Shown: positions 24,078 to 32,778, counted from the first letter of the stretch. The stretch is DNA of 64,000 nt from Halomicroarcula saliterrae (GCF_031624395.1 NZ_JAMQON010000001.1:1240001-1304000), one strand, 5' to 3'. Program-made: numbers and translations. Notes: a model not told the origin generated them from the letters alone.

Positions 24078-25196
24078 CTATTCGTCCTCGGTCGCCGTCG
24101 CCTGCGACAGCGCGTCCTCGGGTTCGACCCAGATGACGAACTGGTCGTACTCCGCCCGGTCGACGACGCCGTTGATGTACTCGGCGTCGACCGGCGGGCG
24201 GTTGACGTCGGACTCGGCGACCGGGACGACCTGTCGGACCTCGTCGACGACCCAGCCGACCGCGCCCTGCTCCTCGAACTGCTCCGGGTCGAAGACGATG
24301 ATGAGGTTCTGTTCGCCCTCGCTCTCGATGTTCATCATCTCCTTGGGTTCGAGGATGGTCGTAATCTGGCCCCGCAGGTCGACGACACCGTCGACGAAAT
24401 CTGGCGTGTTGGGCACCCGCGTGACCGCGCTCCGTTTGACGATCTCCTCGACGTACTCGATGTCCAGACAGTAGTACTCCTCGCCGAGCGCGAACTCGAG
24501 GACGCGCACCACCTCCTCGGACTGGGTCGACCCCTCCTCCATCGCGGCTCGCGCCCCGCCCTCGGTGGACTCGACCGAGGAGGTGGCCATCGCCGCCTCC
24601 AGCAGCTCCCGGTCCGGGAGCTCGACGCCGGTCACGTCCCCGGGCACCGTCGAGGCACCGGTCACGTCCGCCGGGACCGACGGACTGTCCGTCTCGGTCG
24701 CTGCCTCGCTGTCGGTCCCCGCCTCGGCCGTCTCACCGGCGTCCGTTCCCATCACTTCCGCCGCCGACGCGGCGGCTCGCTGGGCGATGGCCTCGGCCTC
24801 GTCGGCCGCCGCGGGCGAGTTCGACGCGTCCGACCGGGAGTCGGTCGCGTCCGTCCGTGTCGACGCGGGCTGTGAGCGCTCCGGCGGTTCCGACGCCGTC
24901 GTGCCGGTCCCCGACGCCGTGGCAGCGTCACTCCCAGTCGTCGCGCGCTCGGTCGCGCCGTCGTTCTCACTCCCGTCCGTCGCGGGTTCGCCGGGCGACT
25001 CCGTCGACGCTGCGTCGTTGCCCGAGCTCGGATGGCCGGAGTCGCTGTCCGACGCCGCCGGTTCGGAGACATCGGTCGACGCCGCTGTCTCGGCCTCCGC
25101 GGTCGCGTCGGACTCCGCCGTTTCGTCGTCGGTACCCCTGTTGCCTTCGCGCATGTTGCGGATGCGCGCTGCTCTGTCCATACGGTCGTCGCTCAT
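24078..25196 (-). CDS. CheW-domain protein with a ~230-residue disordered N-terminus (ParP-like candidate)
   Basis: 372 residues. Residues 1-25 are basic (DRMDRAARIRNMREG); 26-225 are low-complexity Ser/Thr/Asp/Glu/Ala; 230-365 are a CheW/AIF domain (VRVLEFALGEEYYCLDIEYV, then VDLRGQITTILEP, then GWVVDEVRQVVPV). Ordinary CheW is about 150 residues, so the long tail is the oddity. The start ATG overlaps the stop of an upstream ParA-type ATPase by four bases. In Vibrio, ParP couples a CheW-like AIF domain and a disordered tail to the ParA-like ParC to hold chemosensory arrays at the pole; this gene pair has the same architecture, which is an inference of function, not of homology. Confidence 0.85.
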   Translation of the reverse strand: MSDDRMDRAARIRNMREGNRGTDDETAESDATAEAETAASTDVSEPAASDSDSGHPSSGNDAASTESPGEPATDGSENDGATERATTGSDAATASGTGTTASEPPERSQPASTRTDATDSRSDASNSPAAADEAEAIAQRAAASAAEVMGTDAGETAEAGTDSEAATETDSPSVPADVTGASTVPGDVTGVELPDRELLEAAMATSSVESTEGGARAAMEEGSTQSEEVVRVLEFALGEEYYCLDIEYVEEIVKRSAVTRVPNTPDFVDGVVDLRGQITTILEPKEMMNIESEGEQNLIIVFDPEQFEEQGAVGWVVDEVRQVVPVAESDVNRPPVDAEYINGVVDRAEYDQFVIWVEPEDALSQATATEDE

Positions 25197-26086
25197 GCTG
25201 TCACCTCGTTGTAACCGAACTTCCTGTCGAACTCCGCGGCGATGTCGCCGAACACCTCGGCCATGTCACACTGCTCGTCGACGCCGAAGAGGGAGTTGCC
25301 CTCGGTGTAGGCCCGCTGGAGGGCCACCCGTTTCCGGACCTGCCACACCGGGCTGTCCGGAAACGCCGCTTTGAACCACTTCAGCATCGTCTTCGCTTCC
25401 GACGTCGTCTCGATACGGTTGGCGACGACACCGAGCATCTCGACGGTGATGCCGGTCTGCTGTTCGAGCGCGACCATCTGGTCCATCAGCAGTTCGATGG
25501 CCCGCTCGGAGGTCGCCTCCGCCAGCGCCGGCACGAGGACGTGCTGGGCGGCGAAGACCCCGGTGTCGGTCAGGTTCCCGTAGAACGGCGGGGAGTCGAT
25601 GATGACGTAATCGTACCCCGACAGCGTCGACAGCGCCCGGTCCAGCGTGTCCAGCGCGTGCTCGCCCCGGACCATCCCCGGCGTGACGTTGACAGCGAAC
25701 TGCGAGAGCACCGCCGGGTCGACGTCGAGCCCGCGGGCGTTGATGCGGGCCATGAGGTCGGCGATGGTCAGTTCGTGTTCCGCCTGCAGCATGTCGATGT
25801 TCGAGGGGACCACGTCCATCTCCTCGTGTTCGACCACGAGGTCGGACACCACCGCGGGGTCGCCGGTGAGCGCGTCGAACAGCGTCGGCGGCTGCGCGTC
25901 GTAAGCCTCGCCGAGCCCCAGTCCCTCGGTCGCGTTGCCCTGCGGGTCCAGGTCCACGAAGAGGACGTCCCGGCCCCGGTCACTCAACGCACCGGCTACG
26001 TTGATAGCTACAGTCGTCTTGCCGGTCCCGCCCTTCGCGTTGGTCACGCAGATCCGGGCGGGGCCGGTCGTCGAGCCCCGGTTCAT
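25193..26086 (-). CDS. ParA/Soj-family ATPase, coupled to cheW
   Basis: 297 residues. Deviant Walker A KGGTGKTT (residues 15-22, AKGGTGKTTVAINVAG), switch region DLDPQGNAT, Walker B YDYVIIDSPPF. This is the ParA/MinD superfamily, with no MinD-type C-terminal amphipathic helix (it ends in FDRKFGYNEVTA). No ParB gene or parS-like repeat is near; its partner is instead a CheW protein with a long tail, translationally coupled (ATGA at 25193-25196). Such orphan ParA proteins position cargo such as chemoreceptor arrays. Start at 26086 fits a TATA box (TATTTTTATA) at 26121-26130. Confidence 0.92.
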   Translation of the reverse strand: MNRGSTTGPARICVTNAKGGTGKTTVAINVAGALSDRGRDVLFVDLDPQGNATEGLGLGEAYDAQPPTLFDALTGDPAVVSDLVVEHEEMDVVPSNIDMLQAEHELTIADLMARINARGLDVDPAVLSQFAVNVTPGMVRGEHALDTLDRALSTLSGYDYVIIDSPPFYGNLTDTGVFAAQHVLVPALAEATSERAIELLMDQMVALEQQTGITVEMLGVVANRIETTSEAKTMLKWFKAAFPDSPVWQVRKRVALQRAYTEGNSLFGVDEQCDMAEVFGDIAAEFDRKFGYNEVTA

Positions 26087-26120
26087 CGTCGAACTGTCCC
26101 AATCTCGGTCGTCGCCCGGT

Positions 26121-26130
26121 ATAAAAATAC
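26121..26130 (-). promoter_or_regulatory. TATA box for the parA-cheW operon
   Basis: TATTTTTATA on the minus strand, about 35-45 bases upstream of the parA ATG at 26086. The divergent region (26087-26258) also holds an imperfect palindrome GTCGT-CAG-ACGAC at 26196-26208, a possible operator between the two transcription units; operator status is a guess. Confidence 0.5.
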
Positions 26131-26258
26131 GCCCCCGATTATCAAAGTCGTAACTGTGCGTGTTCGGGCGATTTACGCGCATGCGGCCGTGAGCCGTCGT
26201 CAGACGACCGTCAGACCGAGTGCAAGATTTAACTTCGCGTAGTTGAAACAGGGAGACC

Positions 26259-26756
26259 ATGACTATCAACCCGCGCGACTACGACCTCGACGAGCTGCGG
26301 AAGATGGCCCGCCAGCGCGGCGAGCGCTCGGGCGGGCTGGCCGACGGCGACGATGTCCCCGACCCGGCGAACCTGGATATGGGAATGGAGGAGGGAGACG
26401 AGGAGATGCTGGCGGGCAGTTCCTTCCGGTCGGGGCTGTATCGGGAGCTGCTCCCCTTCCTCTCGGGAGAGAGCCGGGAGAAACCGTATCTCGGAGCCCT
26501 ACCGGAGACGTACGCGGCGGAGTTCGTCGTCTTCGAGTGGCTGGAGTTCCTGCTGATGCACTCGGGCTATCAGGGGGCCGACGAGGCGCTGGCCTACTAC
26601 GAGTCCATCGACTGGATTACCGAGGCGGTCCAGTCGGACCTCTCGGACTACCTGCTCGGCATCGACGAATCGGCCACGAACGACGGGAACGACCTCAGCG
26701 TCGACGACCACATGCTGAGTCTCGTCTACATCGCGAAGCTGACTGCCATGACATAG
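26259..26756 (+). CDS. Stand-alone ArlD/E (FlaD/E) domain archaellum-accessory protein
   Basis: 165 residues. N-terminal NPRDYDLDELRKMARQRG resembles the start of haloarchaeal FlaD/E proteins; a variable acidic linker follows (residues 25-60), and residues about 65-163 are an Arch_fla_DE domain: KPYLGALPETYAAEFVVFEW, then LAYYESIDWITEAVQSDL, then VDDHMLSLVYIAKL, all hallmark positions. ArlC/D/E form the cytosolic link between the archaellum motor and chemotaxis via CheF. It is divergent from parA-cheW and upstream of the actin-like gene. TATA-like GATTTAACT at 26226-26234. Confidence 0.82.
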   Translation: MTINPRDYDLDELRKMARQRGERSGGLADGDDVPDPANLDMGMEEGDEEMLAGSSFRSGLYRELLPFLSGESREKPYLGALPETYAAEFVVFEWLEFLLMHSGYQGADEALAYYESIDWITEAVQSDLSDYLLGIDESATNDGNDLSVDDHMLSLVYIAKLTAMT

Positions 26757-26837
26757 CAAGGTCATTCGTGGACCACTATCACTGCTGATTCTTGACGTGA
26801 GGTTATATAGCCGGGCAGCGACAACTGGGCATCGTAC

Positions 26838-27941
26838 ATGAGTGACGACGACGCGGCGGAGGCCGCCGACGAGGACGCGCCGGCGACCTCCGAGGACGAC
26901 GGCACGAACGGGGGGACGGTTCCGGTCGGTGTGAAACTCGGTAGCACTCGGACAGTTATCGCCCTGCCCGACAGCCACGGCACCGAGAACCACATCATCA
27001 AGACGCTGACCTGCATGGCGACCTACGAAGACGCGTTGACGGGCGAGGAGAAGGTGCTCTACGGCGAAGAGGCCGCCCGGGAGTACCCCGACCGCGTCCA
27101 GTACATGCTCCGGTCCGGGCTCCCCGAGGACGAGGACCGTGCGGAGATGACCAAGACGTTCTTCGAGGCGCTCATCGAGGAGAACGACATCCCGGCAAAC
27201 AGCGGCGTCGTCTACGCCATCCCGACCATCGACAACCCGGCCGGTCTGGAGAATCTGAAAGCGGTCATCGAGGACTCGGGCATCGGAATCAGCCTCATGG
27301 AGAGCTATCCGGAGTCGCTGTGTGGCTCCATTCCGGCTTTCGGTGACGAGCTCGAAGCCATCGACGAGATATTCATCTCGGTGAACATGGGGTCGACGAA
27401 CCTCGAAGCCTCGGCGTACCGGCGCGGCGAGCAGCTCGCGCCCTTCACGACCGGCGCGGTGACCGGTAACGAAGTCGACCGCATGATAGCGAACTACGTC
27501 GAAGAGGAGACCCAGGGACGGGTCAACATCGACACCCAGACCGCCCGCGAGTACAAGGAGGGCCACGCGGACTTCCTCGATTTCGAGCCCTTTACCGACA
27601 TCATCCAGCAGCCCGGCGGCGGGACCCACGAGTTCACCATCGAGCGCTCGGTGATGGACGCCGTCGACGAGTACCTCGACGACGCGGTCGACGAACTCGC
27701 CAACACCTTCCTCCCGGAGCTGGCCAACGATTACATGAAGGTGTACCAGCTGGCGCTGGACCGCCCCATCGTCATCACCGGGGGGATGGCCTGCATCCCC
27801 GGTATCGTCGCGGAGTTCGAGAAGCGACTCAGCGAGGAGCTAAACCGGGAAGTCGAGGCGACTGCGGCCGACCAGCCCGACGTGGCGCCCACTATCGGCG
27901 CTCAGCGAATCGCGGCACGGCTCGTCGAGAACAGCGGTTGA
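26838..27941 (+). CDS. Salactin-like actin-fold ATPase
   Basis: 367 residues: an acidic disordered N-terminus (residues 1-25), then an actin/Hsp70-ATPase fold. Phosphate-1 motif VGVKLGSTRTVIA (30-42), phosphate-2 ISVNMGSTNLEAS near 178, adenosine motif ITGGMACIPGI near 312. The second motif has Asn and Ser where actins have DxGGGT, as in other haloarchaeal actin homologues such as salactin of Halobacterium, which forms dynamically unstable filaments growing from the cell poles. TATA GTTATATAG at 26802-26810 precedes it. Its neighbours (ArlD/E-domain, ParA, CheW) fit a polar role. Confidence 0.8.
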   Translation: MSDDDAAEAADEDAPATSEDDGTNGGTVPVGVKLGSTRTVIALPDSHGTENHIIKTLTCMATYEDALTGEEKVLYGEEAAREYPDRVQYMLRSGLPEDEDRAEMTKTFFEALIEENDIPANSGVVYAIPTIDNPAGLENLKAVIEDSGIGISLMESYPESLCGSIPAFGDELEAIDEIFISVNMGSTNLEASAYRRGEQLAPFTTGAVTGNEVDRMIANYVEEETQGRVNIDTQTAREYKEGHADFLDFEPFTDIIQQPGGGTHEFTIERSVMDAVDEYLDDAVDELANTFLPELANDYMKVYQLALDRPIVITGGMACIPGIVAEFEKRLSEELNREVEATAADQPDVAPTIGAQRIAARLVENSG

Positions 27942-28398
27942 GACGGTTCACAGACCGACCGCGGCGCTGTCGTGCGGTCGGGTCCGTCGATTTGCAGCGG
28001 TGACCCTACCGACGCCAGCAGTCGAGCCACCGCGCTATCTTCGGCCCGCTGTCACCGCTGTCCCCACCTGTCGCGGTGAGCGTGGCGAAAACGTCGGTGT
28101 CGATACGGACGGCCGCGCCCGGTTCGGTCCGGCCACCGCTGGCCGACTCCTCATCGTGTGAACGCCCCTGTCGTACGCCTGCCATGGTCCAGCGTTTGTA
28201 GCCATGATACCTAAAGCCAAGTCAGACGCGCGTCTGCCGGTCCCCGGGCCGTTTATTCTTCGCACCCGGGTAATCGCACAACGCGAACCCTCTCTCCCCC
28301 AACGGCCGCAATATTAATCACCGCCGGTGCTATTTTTACAGCCACCTCTCAGAATAGATAGGTGAATATCATACCAATCGGTGATGTAATCGCAACTA
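27942..28398. other. Intergenic region, one doubtful 59-residue ORF and an A+T-rich promoter
   Basis: 457 bases. On the minus strand 28006-28185 an ATG-started 59-codon ORF (MAGVRQGRSHDEESASGG..., ending ARWLDCWRR) shows mostly G/C third bases and a TATA-like TTTAGGTAT upstream, but resembles no family; I rate it doubtful. Bases 28300-28398 are A+T-rich with GCTATTTTTACAG (28330-28342) as a possible promoter for the following large gene and partial inverted repeats around ATCACCG/CGGTGAT. Confidence 0.4.
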
Positions 28399-30240
28399 AT
28401 GGGTCAAATTATCGATTTAAATAGCTGGGAAGAGGGGTTACCCGGCGCACTCACGCGGACCGGAGGGGGTGGGTTACTGTCCAGGGGGTATCTCGCCGAC
28501 CAGCCGGCGGTAGCGCTGGTCGAGGACGCCGAGACGATGCAGTACGTGCTTACGAACCGAAAGAGCGGTGTCGAGGTCGAATCGGCGGACTCGACGTATC
28601 ACGTGAAACCGGACAGCCGCCACCGGACGGTCGTCGTGGCCACCGACCGCAGGCTACTGGTGCTCGTCGGACGCGAGGCGGGGGACGAGCGCACCACTAT
28701 CGAACTGGCCGAGGTCACTGGCGTCGAAGTGAGCGTGGGACGCCGGAACGGCCGGCTCACGGTCAGTCGGGCCGACGACACCACGTGGCGGATACCGACC
28801 GACGCCGACGGGCTCGACGCCGTCGCCGGCTACCTCCGCGACGCGGCCGACGCGTGGCGACACGTCGAGGACCTGCTGGCGTCGGTGGACGCGGACCTCT
28901 CTCTGGCGACCAGACTGTCCGAGACCGGGGAGTACGACCGCGCTCTCTCGACGGCGCGCGGGACACAGGACGACATCGAGGCCGCCCGGTCGATGGCGAT
29001 GCGGTTTAGCACTGAACATCCGGGGAACGCGTTACACGAACGACCCAAGGCGGCCGAGGCGCGCCAGCGAGCGACCGTGGCCGCCGTCCACGTCGCCCGG
29101 GCCAGAGACGCGGCCACGATTGGGGAGCAGCGCTTCGGGGACAGCGACTACGAGGCGGCCCAGGAAGCGTACGAGCGGGCCCGCGAAGCGTACGACTCGG
29201 CGCTGACCGTCGAAGCGGGAGGGCTCGACGACCACAAGCAGATACGGGCAGAACGCGACAAGGCGGCCGCTATCGCCGAGAGAATCCGCGACTCGCCCCT
29301 CCCGGACGCTATCACGGCAGACAGGGCGGCCGTCGCGGCCGACGACCCCGCGACGGCGGCCACGCAGTGGGAGACGGCGCTGGCACGCTATCGGTCGGCG
29401 CTCGACGCCGACGAGCCGGACGACGTCCTCTTCGGGAGCGACCCCGAGCAGATACGGGACCGCATCGGGACCGTCGCCCGGAGCCTCACCGCGGCCCGGC
29501 GGACCGTCGCCGACGACGCCATGGGGGCCGGCGACTGGTACGCCGACGCCGAACAGTACGAGGCGGCACTGGAAGAGTTCGCGGCGGCCGCCGAGGCCTT
29601 CGACGCCGCGCTGGCGACCGCCACGGAGAGCTACCCCGACGCGGTCCCGCATCTGGAGGCCGACCGCGCGGCGCTCCAGCAGCGCATCGACCGCGCGCAA
29701 GCGGCCCTGAACGGCGAGGACCCCGGCGAGGACCGCATTCAGGCCGACGACGAGCCCGAATACGAGCTGTCGGCGACGCTCGGGGAGGTGGACGGCCCGA
29801 CCGCGATAGCGGACGCCATCGCACCGCTGACGACGGACGCGGCGCTGGCGGAGTTACCGGAGTCGACCGCCGAGCGTCTCCAGCGGCTCGACGGCGCCGG
29901 CGTGACGCGGGTCGTCAGCGACGCGCTGGACGCGACGGACTGGTCGACCCGGGCCGCCAGCCCGCGGATGCCGTTCGACCTGCTTGCCACACGCGGCACG
30001 GAACGGATGGGCGTCTTCGTCACGGCCGCAGACAGCGAACTCACCGCCGATGTCGTCGACCAGTGTGCCGGCGTCACCGGCGCGGCCGGCACCGACGCCG
30101 TGATGCTCGCGACCACCGCGACGATTCCGACGCCGGTCGAGGAGTTCGCGGCCGAGCGCGACGCCCGACTCCTGGGGCGCGAGTCGCTGGCCGCCATCGT
30201 CGACACCCAGGGGCTGACGGTCCCGACACCGGTCGAGTGA
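28399..30240 (+). CDS. PH-like / helical-repeat / degenerate Mrr-like protein
   Basis: 613 residues. About 35-150 looks like a bacterial PH/GRAM-type beta domain (TMQYVLTNRKSGVEVE, then TVVVATDRRLLVLVGREAGD, then VTGVEVSVGRRNGRLTV). 160-430 is Ala-rich helical with TPR-like pairs (DYEAAQEAYERAREAYDSAL; EQYEAALEEFAAAAEAFDAA). 500-613 matches an Mrr/RecB-like endonuclease fold (MPFDLLATRGTERMGVFVTA, then GTDAVMLATTATIPTPVEEF), keeping the first Asp but lacking the Gln/Glu-x-Lys of the active site (VFV instead), so probably not a nuclease. Possible membrane-surface scaffold. Confidence 0.78.
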   Translation: MGQIIDLNSWEEGLPGALTRTGGGGLLSRGYLADQPAVALVEDAETMQYVLTNRKSGVEVESADSTYHVKPDSRHRTVVVATDRRLLVLVGREAGDERTTIELAEVTGVEVSVGRRNGRLTVSRADDTTWRIPTDADGLDAVAGYLRDAADAWRHVEDLLASVDADLSLATRLSETGEYDRALSTARGTQDDIEAARSMAMRFSTEHPGNALHERPKAAEARQRATVAAVHVARARDAATIGEQRFGDSDYEAAQEAYERAREAYDSALTVEAGGLDDHKQIRAERDKAAAIAERIRDSPLPDAITADRAAVAADDPATAATQWETALARYRSALDADEPDDVLFGSDPEQIRDRIGTVARSLTAARRTVADDAMGAGDWYADAEQYEAALEEFAAAAEAFDAALATATESYPDAVPHLEADRAALQQRIDRAQAALNGEDPGEDRIQADDEPEYELSATLGEVDGPTAIADAIAPLTTDAALAELPESTAERLQRLDGAGVTRVVSDALDATDWSTRAASPRMPFDLLATRGTERMGVFVTAADSELTADVVDQCAGVTGAAGTDAVMLATTATIPTPVEEFAAERDARLLGRESLAAIVDTQGLTVPTPVE

Positions 30241-30299
30241 GACGCGCTAGCACCGGACGCCGAAGCTTTATTCTCACCGAGAGAGTATAATCAACTATA

Positions 30300-30434
30300 A
30301 TGAACTGTACGCGCTGTGGCGCCAGAATGACGTACAACGACGAGACAACGAAACTGACCGAGTTCGTCTGCCCGCGCTGTCACGAGACGGTCATCGACTG
30401 GAAGCCCGAGGCCCGGAACGTCCGGCTCGCGTAG
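30300..30434 (+). CDS. 44-residue zinc-ribbon protein
   Basis: Too short for most callers. ATG at 30300; two Cys pairs, CTRC (residues 3-6) and CPRC (24-27), separated by 17 residues: a treble-clef/zinc-ribbon micro-protein. TATA-like CTTTATT at 30266 and a second GAGTATAAT at 30283 precede it, and a T-tract at 30466-30471 follows, forming a complete small transcription unit. Function unknown; perhaps an RNA- or DNA-binding adaptor. Confidence 0.75.
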   Translation: MNCTRCGARMTYNDETTKLTEFVCPRCHETVIDWKPEARNVRLA

Positions 30435-30465
30435 CTCGGTCGCCCCCTGCGTGTCGACAGCCCTG

Positions 30466-30471
30466 TTTTTT
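30466..30471 (+). terminator. T-tract terminator candidate after the zinc-ribbon gene
   Basis: TTTTTT 31 bases downstream of the stop at 30434, preceding the convergent FtsZ-like gene. Matches the U-tract terminators typical of haloarchaea; no stem-loop was needed or seen. Confidence 0.5.
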
Positions 30472-30477
30472 CGAGCG

Positions 30478-31389
30478 TCACAGCGTCGTGCTGGTCCCGG
30501 CGTAGCCACAGTCGTCACAGGCTGCCGTCTCTCGCTCGCCCAGCGTGTAGACCGCCACGTGGCCGCCACACCGGGGGCAGTTGTCGCCCGCCGACGGCTG
30601 GCGCGCGTCCCGGACGACGCGGTCGAACACCGGCGTTCGCGTCGAGCCCGCGACGACCTGCGCGTGGACCGCCGAGACGGAGTCCTCGACGGCGACGCCC
30701 CAGATGAGCACGGCGTCGTCCGGGAGCGTGGCCTGGATACCGTCCACGGCGTCGACTGCCGATTCGAGCGTGAGGTCGTCGTCGCCGACGACGTTGACCA
30801 GTACGGCGCTGAGCCCGTCGATGTCCGCGTAGGCCGAATCGAGCGCGTCCTCGACCGCGTGAAGCGTGTCCGCGGCCACGTCGCCGGTACTCGTCGCCTT
30901 ACCGGTCGTTATCGCGGCGGCCTCGCCGTGGTCGAGCACCGTCCTGATGTCCGCGGGGTCGAGGTTGATGACGCCGGGTCGGGCGACGATCTCGTGCAGC
31001 GTCGTCACCACCGAGCGGACGCCCTGACGGTGATGCTCTGGCGGGATGACGACGGTCGCGTCCACGGCCGAGCGGAGCCGGGCGATTTCCCGGGCCGTCG
31101 TGGGGTCCAGGTCCGCCGCGGTCGCCGGTGCGCCGACGACGGCGATTGTCAGCCCCTCGCGCGTCGCCAGCCGGTCGAGCCACTCTGCCGGCGGCACGGT
31201 TCCGTTGCCAAAGTCCGTCGCGAACACCGTGATGGCCGACCGGTCACGCGGCTCCGTCGGAGGCTCGGACAGCGCGGTGATACCCGGGACCTGCCCCAGG
31301 CTCTCCCCGACGGCCGCGAGCCCGCCGTGACCGATGACGACCGAGTGGTGGTGGCCCAGAAACGTGACGGTATCTCCTCGAATAGACAC
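30478..31389 (-). CDS. Shortened FtsZ-like protein with C-terminal zinc ribbon
   Basis: 303 residues (FtsZ is 360-400). T1-like start VVIGHGGLAAVGESLG (17-32); only about 28 residues separate it from ATDFGNGTVPP (57-67), which stands where the GGGTGTG nucleotide loop is; then LTIAVVGAP, AVDATVVIPPEHH and the T7 loop GVINLDPADIRTVL (139-152) with the catalytic N-x-D-x-x-D (142-147) intact; SAVLVNVVGDDDLTLE and AVLIWGVAVED follow in exact FtsZ order. Residues 271-294 are a zinc ribbon (CPRC, CDDC), absent from FtsZ. GTP binding is therefore doubtful but the T7 loop could complete another subunit's active site. Confidence 0.8.
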   Translation of the reverse strand: MSIRGDTVTFLGHHHSVVIGHGGLAAVGESLGQVPGITALSEPPTEPRDRSAITVFATDFGNGTVPPAEWLDRLATREGLTIAVVGAPATAADLDPTTAREIARLRSAVDATVVIPPEHHRQGVRSVVTTLHEIVARPGVINLDPADIRTVLDHGEAAAITTGKATSTGDVAADTLHAVEDALDSAYADIDGLSAVLVNVVGDDDLTLESAVDAVDGIQATLPDDAVLIWGVAVEDSVSAVHAQVVAGSTRTPVFDRVVRDARQPSAGDNCPRCGGHVAVYTLGERETAACDDCGYAGTSTTL

Positions 31390-31467: not shown

Positions 31468-32778
31468 TCAGTTAAGGCCGTACCCGGAACTGTCGTCCGT
31501 AGCCGCCCGCGACAACAGCTCCCGTTCGGTCGGTGGAAGCGACTCGTCGGCCATCGGAATCTCCCAGTGCCCGAGTTTGCCCAGCATCCGGGTCCGGGAG
31601 CCCTCGACGCCGAGTCGGAGCGTCGGGGCGAGCGTCCCGCCGAAGCGACGGAGCTGCTCCGACTCCGGGAGCTCGGCGATTTCGTCCAGCGTCTCCCCGG
31701 CGAAATCGAAGTAGTTGAAGAAGTTCTGGACCAGCAACTCCCCGTCGTGGGGAAAGACCATCCAGGAGTACGCCTGGAACGGGGCGTTCGCGGGGTTGGT
31801 CACGACCAGTCCGGTGTCGTTGAGCGGGACGTAGTCGCCCCTGAGCTCCTCGGCGACGAAGCCGTAGAGCCCGTCGAACCCGGTGAGGCCCGGCCCGAAG
31901 GTGTGGAGGTGGCTGGAGACAAAGAGGTAGTACAGCCCGTCGCGGTAGACGATGTGGGGCCGTTCCAGCTCCTGGTTGACTCCGACGGCGTCCAGCAACG
32001 GGTCCGCGAGCTCCCAGTCGAGGGGGTCCCCCGTGGGCGAGCGGGCGATACCGACGCTGCCGTTGAACCCCTGCTGTGTTGCGTCGCCGCCGCAGGCTGC
32101 GCTCCCCTCGGGGACGGGTGAGTTCGCCTCGAAGAGCAGCCACGTCTCACCGGTCTCGGGGTCCTCGAAGAACCACGGGTCACGGAAGGTGTAGGTCATC
32201 GCCCGCGACTGGTCCTCGCGTTCGTAGCGCTCCCCGTCGGGCGAAAGCAGTTCGTGGTGGGTCCAGGGGCCGGCCAGCTCGAACCCGTCGTCGGTGTCGA
32301 TACGCCCGCCGGTCGCGCCGACGATACGCTGCGTGTAGGTCAGCTCGCCGGCCGCCTCGTCCCCGGCGGCGGTGTAGAACAGGTAGACGTCGCCGTCGTC
32401 GTACAGCGCTGAGCCCGCCCACTGGCGCTGCCCCAGCGCCGACTCGAACACCGGGCCGCCGTCGGTCCAGTTCCGCCCGTCGGCCGAGTAGAACAGCCGA
32501 ATCGTCGCGACGTCGTGTCGCGCGCCCGGGAGCGTCTCGGAGGGCGCAGTCAGCGAGAAGCAGACGCGATAGCCGTCGACCGTCGCCGGCGTCCCGTCCC
32601 GCTCGCGGAGGAGCCACGTGTCCCAGATGTGCAGATGGGGCATCTGGTCGGTCTCCGGCGGGTAGAACACCGGCGCCACCGTCTCTGCCGTCCGTTCGAT
32701 ACCGCTGGCCTGCTCGCGTGTCCAGCCGGCGCGGGCGCGGAACCCGGGGGCGCCCTCGTCGAGTAACTGCTCGTCCAT
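31468..32778 (-). CDS. GH68 family levansucrase/inulosucrase (fructosyltransferase), no signal peptide
   Basis: 436 residues, five-bladed propeller GH68. Nucleophile Asp53 in HIWDTWLL, transition-state Asp in FRDPWFF (about 199), acid/base Glu in ELERPHIV (about 268); WAGSALYDDGDVYLFYTA and ANAPFQAYSWMVFPHD also match. The family polymerises fructose from sucrose outside the cell, yet here the protein starts directly at MDEQLLDEG with no Sec or Tat signal. TATA AGCCTTATAA at 32801-32810, 28 bases before the ATG, fixes the start as leaderless, so the lack of a signal is not due to mis-annotation. It may act in the cytoplasm or leave by an unrecognised route. Confidence 0.9.
   Translation of the reverse strand: MDEQLLDEGAPGFRARAGWTREQASGIERTAETVAPVFYPPETDQMPHLHIWDTWLLRERDGTPATVDGYRVCFSLTAPSETLPGARHDVATIRLFYSADGRNWTDGGPVFESALGQRQWAGSALYDDGDVYLFYTAAGDEAAGELTYTQRIVGATGGRIDTDDGFELAGPWTHHELLSPDGERYEREDQSRAMTYTFRDPWFFEDPETGETWLLFEANSPVPEGSAACGGDATQQGFNGSVGIARSPTGDPLDWELADPLLDAVGVNQELERPHIVYRDGLYYLFVSSHLHTFGPGLTGFDGLYGFVAEELRGDYVPLNDTGLVVTNPANAPFQAYSWMVFPHDGELLVQNFFNYFDFAGETLDEIAELPESEQLRRFGGTLAPTLRLGVEGSRTRMLGKLGHWEIPMADESLPPTERELLSRAATDDSSGYGLN

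What the first reader, a model, noticed from the sequence alone, without database searches (positions are those of the whole stretch)
24078..31389. Candidate polar/cytoskeletal neighbourhood: ParA, CheW, ArlD/E-domain, salactin-like, PH-Mrr-like protein, zinc ribbon, FtsZ-like
Seven genes over 7.3 kb include two filament-type NTPase folds (actin-like, tubulin-like), a positioning ATPase, a chemotaxis adaptor and an archaellum-accessory domain. Each is unusual; together they suggest a module organising the cell pole, archaella and chemotaxis. Shared function is inference from adjacency; only the parA-cheW pair is coupled by overlap.
Basis: inference. Interest (0 to 1): 0.75.

Follow-up and report, generated by a model that had tools for sequence, protein, structure and literature searches.

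The report
Archaeal actin gene paired with ArlD
In salt-loving archaea the gene for salactin, an actin-like protein that grows filaments out of the cell poles, sits beside the gene for ArlD, part of the swimming motor's switch, in most species that carry it, and in some species inside the motor's own gene cluster, so this actin probably helps organise the swimming pole.

Summary
The stand-alone ArlD/E-domain protein is best read as ArlD itself, the archaellum switch protein, the only one in this genome, absent from the genome's arl cluster. It lies directly upstream of salactin in 63 of 80 named salactin loci. Haloferax, Halobellus and Halogeometricum have cheY-cheC-cheD-arlD-salactin; two Halovenus-type genomes carry two salactin genes inside the arl operon. 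All 71 salactin-bearing Halobacteria sampled have ArlD/E-domain genes. ParA and its overlapping CheW form a second, separable linkage to arlD, resembling bacterial ParC/ParP: conserved N-terminal motif, long variable linker, C-terminal CheW domain. The FtsZ-like protein lacks the FtsZ GTP-binding motif and is confined to a Haloarcula subclade here, so it is not part of the module. Most likely ArlD, or the polar complex containing it, is the pole-side partner of salactin filaments (inferred, about 0.5). Against: a published salactin deletion in Halobacterium showed no swimming defect, and outside Halobacteria salactin is encoded without ArlD.

The parts
24078..25196 (-). ParA-linked CheW-domain adaptor (372 aa): N-terminal motif RMDRAxRIRxMREGxR, ~210-aa acidic linker, C-terminal CheW domain
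   Evidence: Pfam CheW 3.8e-22 at residues 232-365; motif present in 22 of 23 homologues, linker variable; one of three CheW-domain genes in the genome
25193..26137 (-). ParA-type ATPase (start uncertain), 4-bp overlap with cheW
   Evidence: AAA_31 6.5e-33; ParA_partition 86 bits against minD_arch 57 bits, both below the equivalog cut-offs; in 23 of 145 genomes; CheW-domain gene beside it in every locus examined with enough flank
26259..26756 (+). arlD: archaellum switch protein, N-terminal NPRDYDLDELRKMA motif, linker, C-terminal ArlD/E domain
   Evidence: PF04659 5.5e-29; motif shared with arl-cluster ArlD of Halobacterium and absent from ArlCE, once per genome in relatives; tree; no other ArlD in the genome
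26838..27941 (+). salactin, actin-like ATPase
   Evidence: PF25229 1.5e-186, NCBIfam salactin equivalog 599 bits, cut-off 400
26803..26810 (+). TATA-like element about 28 bp before the salactin start, so salactin probably also has its own promoter here
   Evidence: sequence TTATATA; consensus resemblance only
28399..30240 (+). PH / helical (TPR-like) / Mrr-like protein, probably catalytically dead; a passenger in Haloarcula relatives
   Evidence: bPH_3 and Mrr_cat above cut-off in relatives; model pLDDT 88, PH match TMt 0.65; QxK positions lost; downstream of salactin in 4 of 24 genera
30300..30434 (+). 44-aa zinc-ribbon protein; not part of the module
   Evidence: sub-threshold zinc-ribbon hits; kept downstream of salactin in most Haloarcula
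30478..31389 (-). FtsZ-like protein without GTP-binding signature, with C-terminal zinc ribbon; not part of the module
   Evidence: FtsZ_C 2.7e-8; alignment of 13 members lacks GGGTGTG, keeps the NxDxxD loop

Best explanation
The core is a conserved haloarchaeal gene pair, arlD-salactin, joined in Haloarcula relatives by a ParA-CheW pair. ArlD is a component of the archaellum switch/motor base at the cell pole. I propose that ArlD, or the polar complex it belongs to, is the pole-side partner of salactin: it nucleates, captures or anchors salactin filaments, which are known to grow out of the poles, and so couples the swimming pole to what salactin moves or holds (archaellum and array placement at new poles, chromosomes at low ploidy, or both). 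Where present, ParA with its adaptor CheW (basic N-terminal motif contacting ParA, CheW domain inserting into arrays) would position chemosensory arrays at the same pole, like bacterial ParC/ParP. Shown here: protein identities, ArlD assignment, gene-order conservation, separability of the two linkages, placement of salactin in arl/che clusters in several genera, conserved N-terminal motifs. Inferred: physical ArlD-salactin contact, ParA-CheW contact, direction of causality.
For: ArlD/E-domain ORF directly upstream of salactin on the same strand in 63 of 80 named loci; family found near salactin in 21 of 24 genera while the next-best genuine neighbour family reaches 9, scattered. ArlD identity: motif shared with arl-cluster ArlD and absent from ArlCE, once per genome, tree, exactly two PF04659 genes in most genomes including this one, own arl cluster arlCE-F-G-H-I-J without arlD. 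cheY-cheC-cheD-arlD-salactin in Haloferax, Halobellus, Halogeometricum; two salactins inside the arl operon in Halovenus carboxidivorans and SHR40. All 71 salactin-positive Halobacteria carry PF04659 against 42 of 74 negatives. parA-cheW beside arlD without salactin in four genomes. ArlD/E domain directly follows a MamK-type actin in two genomes without archaellins. Literature: salactin grows from the poles (PMC10746226); FlaD binds CheF homologues, flaD deletion hardly motile (PMC2666748); ArlCDE near the polar cap (PMC8978795); H. volcanii unit 'ArlD/HVO_1202' co-upregulated with arl/che genes in a csmR mutant (PMC13286277), HVO_1202 being by synteny the salactin gene (inference).
Against: No interaction data. 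H. salinarum salactin deletion: no motility difference, a DNA-partition phenotype at low phosphate (PMC10746226). In Halobacterium salactin is unlinked to arlD. Outside Halobacteria salactin is not beside PF04659 and 6 of 18 such genomes have no PF04659 match, so salactin does not need ArlD in general. Co-occurrence and gene order are confounded by shared ancestry. The ArlD model matches nothing in the PDB.
Confidence: 0.5

Rival explanations
1. Regulatory linkage only: salactin is a general polar DNA-segregation filament, and it sits beside arlD because both are needed in the same growth state (motile rods in early growth), with no physical contact.
For: DNA-partition phenotype and no motility phenotype in Halobacterium (PMC10746226); arlD-salactin in H. 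volcanii reported as one unit co-regulated with arl/che genes (PMC13286277); separate TATA-like element before salactin here; salactin without ArlD outside Halobacteria.
Against: The ArlD/E domain pairs with a different actin, MamK-type, in a lineage without archaellins; salactin moved into the arl operon separately from arlD in Halovenus carboxidivorans.
Confidence: 0.3
2. The ArlD-like protein beside salactin is a specialised paralogue devoted to salactin rather than the archaellum ArlD.
For: It lies outside the arl cluster in most genomes; salactin-adjacent sequences do not form a single clade in the tree; Haloferax has a second ArlD-like copy nearby.
Against: Most such genomes have no other ArlD; same N-terminal motif as cluster ArlD; in Haloferax it lies in the arl/che cluster.
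Confidence: 0.12
3. Gene order kept only by slow rearrangement; no functional link.
For: All linked genomes belong to one class; salactin neighbourhoods differ within Halobacterium (PMC10746226).
Against: Other neighbours are not retained over the same distances; independent arrangements again place salactin with arl/che genes.
Confidence: 0.08

Closest known systems
Salactin of Halobacterium salinarum (PMC10746226)
   Same: same family (NCBIfam equivalog 599 bits, cut-off 400)
   Different: there encoded away from arlD, which is in the arl cluster; here and in most other haloarchaea directly downstream of arlD
ArlD (FlaD) of the archaellum switch complex ArlCDE
   Same: C-terminal ArlD/E domain, N-terminal NPxxYDxxELR motif, stand-alone ~160 aa, one per genome
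   Different: encoded with salactin and divergently from parA-cheW instead of in the arl cluster
ParC/ParP polar chemosensory-array system of Vibrio (PMC5706961)
   Same: ParA-type ATPase encoded with a protein that has an N-terminal partner region, a long linker and a C-terminal CheW-like domain
   Different: the CheW domain is ~51% identical to this genome's own CheW, so it is probably an independent haloarchaeal derivation; no functional data
MinD4/MinD2 of Haloferax volcanii (PMC11588486)
   Same: ParA/MinD-family ATPases that place archaella and chemosensory arrays at poles
   Different: this protein scores as ParA-type rather than MinD-type and is restricted to Haloarcula relatives plus one other genome
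MamK
   Same: closest actin family to salactin (PMC10746226); reported to interact with the chemoreceptor Amb0994 in magnetotaxis (PMC6056624)
   Different: organises magnetosomes in bacteria; but an archaeal MamK-type actin is followed by an ArlD/E-domain protein

Membership tests
Salactin | sequence above the NCBIfam equivalog cut-off | tested here: met
   599 bits, cut-off 400
Salactin | dynamically unstable polar filaments | not testable with these tools
   shown only for H. salinarum (PMC10746226)
ArlD | C-terminal ArlD/E domain, no FlaC coiled coil | tested here: met
ArlD | N-terminal NPxxYDxxELR motif shared with arl-cluster ArlD | tested here: met
ArlD | separates from ArlCE in a tree | tested here: met
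   ArlCE group 93/91; short alignment, many forks open
ArlD | one clade together with arl-cluster ArlD | tested here: inconclusive
   cluster ArlD group only 70/40 and salactin-adjacent rows not one clade
ArlD | required for swimming | not testable with these tools
   shown for FlaD in H. salinarum (PMC2666748)
ParC/ParP | ParA ATPase adjacent to a protein with a C-terminal CheW-like domain and long linker | tested here: met
ParC/ParP | conserved N-terminal partner region | tested here: met
   motif in 22 of 23; binding to ParA not tested
ParC/ParP | sequence orthology with Vibrio ParP/ParC | not tested
   no ParP/ParC sequence was compared
FtsZ | GGGTGTG GTP-binding signature | tested here: not met
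   absent in all 13 members; present in the genome's FtsZ
FtsZ | T7 loop NxDxxD | tested here: met
   NLDPAD

The most novel reading that the evidence does not exclude
The ArlD/E domain is a general actin-filament partner domain of archaea: it anchors salactin filaments at the archaellum/polar-cap complex in haloarchaea and a MamK-type filament in an archaellum-less lineage, so the archaellum base is an actin-organising centre of the archaeal pole.
Probability: 0.35. Interest if true: 0.9.

Novelty: new variant of a known kind. Interest (0 to 1): 0.74.

Why it matters
What holds salactin at the poles, and what builds the archaeal polar cap, are open questions; salactin's published context was called uninformative because it was examined around Halobacterium, which keeps arlD in its arl cluster. 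A conserved arlD-salactin pair, and salactin inside arl operons, gives a named candidate partner testable in H. volcanii, H. salinarum and Haloarcula. Four papers in the held library mention salactin; in the three that are on topic I found no passage linking it to the archaellum. A haloarchaeal ParC/ParP-like pair would be a second, apparently independent origin of ParA-driven chemosensory-array placement.

Tried and rejected
One seven-gene module: rejected, since FtsZ-like, zinc-ribbon and PH-Mrr genes are local to Haloarcula relatives. FtsZ-like as a cytoskeletal GTPase: G-box lost in all members. An early reading that the FtsZ-like gene next to salactin is unique to this strain was corrected. 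ParA as MinD4: scores as ParA-type, narrow distribution. A known ParA partner in the Halobacterium taxis interactome: none found in PMC3579733. Salactin-ArlD linkage in the ancestor of all Methanotecta: not supported; there most loci show salactin > coiled coil > MinD-type ATPase instead. Structural relatives of ArlD in the PDB: none at E below 1. Salactin against PDB sequences: none. A motif search for other proteins carrying the ArlD N-terminal motif: none in relatives.

Full report
Observation. All seven genes exist at the stated coordinates and carry the stated domains. CheW is a C-terminal domain behind ~230 disordered acidic residues; ParA has a deviant Walker A (KGGTGKTT); the actin is salactin by the curated NCBIfam equivalog (599 bits, cut-off 400); the PH and Mrr readings are confirmed on relatives and by a good model, with the Mrr catalytic QxK lost.

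Which neighbours matter. I fetched about +/-10 kb around salactin in 60 other genomes of the class, clustered all ORFs, and counted families by genus. The ArlD/E-domain family occurs near salactin in 21 of 24 genera, overwhelmingly upstream on the same strand; the next genuine neighbour family reaches 9 genera at scattered positions; ParA-CheW and PH-Mrr reach 4 each; FtsZ-like 0 in this set. A named set of 80 loci gives 63 of 80 with the ArlD/E-domain ORF directly upstream, including Haloarcula, Halomicrobium, Halorientalis, Halorhabdus, Haloplanus, Haloferax, Halobellus, Natronomonas, Halorubrum, Natrinema gelatinilyticum and Actinarchaeum halophilum; the two sets share some genomes. In Halorubrum the two genes overlap by 4 bp. 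Exceptions include Halobacterium and part of Halovenus; in Halosimplex arlD is 5.5 kb upstream. Gap lengths come from mechanical ORF starts.

The ArlD/E protein is ArlD. Most genomes hold exactly two PF04659 genes, a long ArlCE and one short protein. In this genome ArlCE lies at G000:C7 followed by arlF-G-H-I-J without arlD, so the window gene is the only ArlD candidate. Its N-terminal motif NPRDYDLDELRKMA recurs in nearly all salactin-adjacent and ParA-adjacent proteins and in the arl-cluster ArlD of Halobacterium, but not in ArlCE, and occurs once per genome in relatives. A tree separates ArlCE (93/91) from the rest, although 90 columns leave many forks open and the salactin-adjacent rows are not one clade.

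Salactin inside motility clusters. In Haloferax larsenii the order is DUF7500-cheY-cheC-cheD-arlD-salactin beside archaellins, a KaiC-like gene and arlCE; Halobellus, Halogeometricum and another genus agree. In Halovenus carboxidivorans and SHR40 the arl operon reads cheY-cheC-cheD-arlCE-arlF-arlG-salactin-arlCE-arlH-salactin-arlCE, followed by further arl genes, while in the former arlD sits with ParA-CheW elsewhere. In H. volcanii an 'ArlD/HVO_1202' transcriptional unit is up-regulated with arl/che genes in a csmR mutant (PMC13286277); that HVO_1202 is salactin is my inference from Haloferax synteny and from the H. volcanii control ringing for PF25229.

Co-occurrence. All 71 salactin-positive genomes of the class sample have PF04659, against 42 of 74 negatives (Fisher 8e-12, phylogeny not corrected). 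Outside the class this breaks: 6 of 18 salactin genomes have no PF04659 match and none of the fetched loci pairs the two.

ParA-CheW. The ParA occurs in 23 of 145 genomes, nearly all Haloarcula relatives, with a CheW-domain gene beside it wherever the fetched flank allowed a check. Without salactin nearby it still lies divergently from arlD in four genomes. 22 of 23 CheW partners share the N-terminal RMDRAxRIRxMREGxR motif, then a variable acidic linker, then the CheW domain, usually with a 4-bp parA overlap. This is the plan of Vibrio ParP (PMC5706961); that short basic N-termini stimulate ParA ATPases is general knowledge of the ParA field, so the contact is inferred.

Beyond haloarchaea. 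In one family of the phylum (archaellin content and genome size suggest Archaeoglobales; unnamed by the tools) and one further genome, 11 loci read salactin > coiled-coil protein with N-terminal KWDxLFEEL and C-terminal KSPRIL/L > MinD-type ATPase. In genus g127, without detectable archaellins, a MamK-type actin is followed within 30 bp by an 888- or 1940-aa protein with an N-terminal ArlD/E domain and a long coiled coil. These suggest that actin plus ParA/MinD, and actin plus ArlD/E, are recurring partnerships.

Mechanism. Known: salactin grows from poles and aids DNA partition at low ploidy, with no motility change on deletion in Halobacterium (PMC10746226); ArlD is part of the motor-base complex, binds CheF homologues and is needed for normal swimming (PMC2666748, PMC8978795). 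Inferred: ArlD or its complex is the pole-side partner of salactin. The main rival is shared regulation without contact.

FtsZ-like protein. A 13-member family with FtsZ C-terminal half, T7 loop and zinc ribbon but no G-box: a predicted non-GTPase that might cap or modulate FtsZ; not linked to the module.

Noticed in passing
window 30478-31389; L141, L143, L147, L149; L112-L119: Pseudo-FtsZ family: FtsZ C-terminal half with intact T7 loop, no GTP-binding signature, invariant C-terminal zinc ribbon; sporadic in haloarchaea. Could cap FtsZ filaments.
   Followed up: partly
L226-L234, L236, L237: Salactin followed by a coiled-coil protein (N-terminal KWDxLFEEL, C-terminal KSPRIL/L) and a MinD-type ATPase on the same strand in 11 loci outside Halobacteria.
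   Followed up: partly
L241:251-3987; L242:4140-11064: MamK-type actin directly followed by an ArlD/E-domain protein with a huge coiled coil, in two genomes without archaellins.
   Followed up: partly
L184:11045-11488, L187:9419-9862, L191:7122-7583: Second, divergent ArlD-like protein near salactin in Haloferax, also with the NPRxYxxxELR motif.
   Followed up: no
window 28399-30240; L163, L175-L177, L180: PH / TPR-like / dead-Mrr protein family downstream of salactin, in two copies in Halorientalis; the PH domain invites comparison with the CheF PH domains.
   Followed up: partly
L054, L173, L181: Tandemly duplicated arlCE and arlH genes interleaved with two salactin genes in one arl operon.
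   Followed up: partly
window 31468-32778: GH68 levansucrase/invertase beside the region, kept next to it in most Haloarcula and Halomicrobium loci.
   Followed up: no
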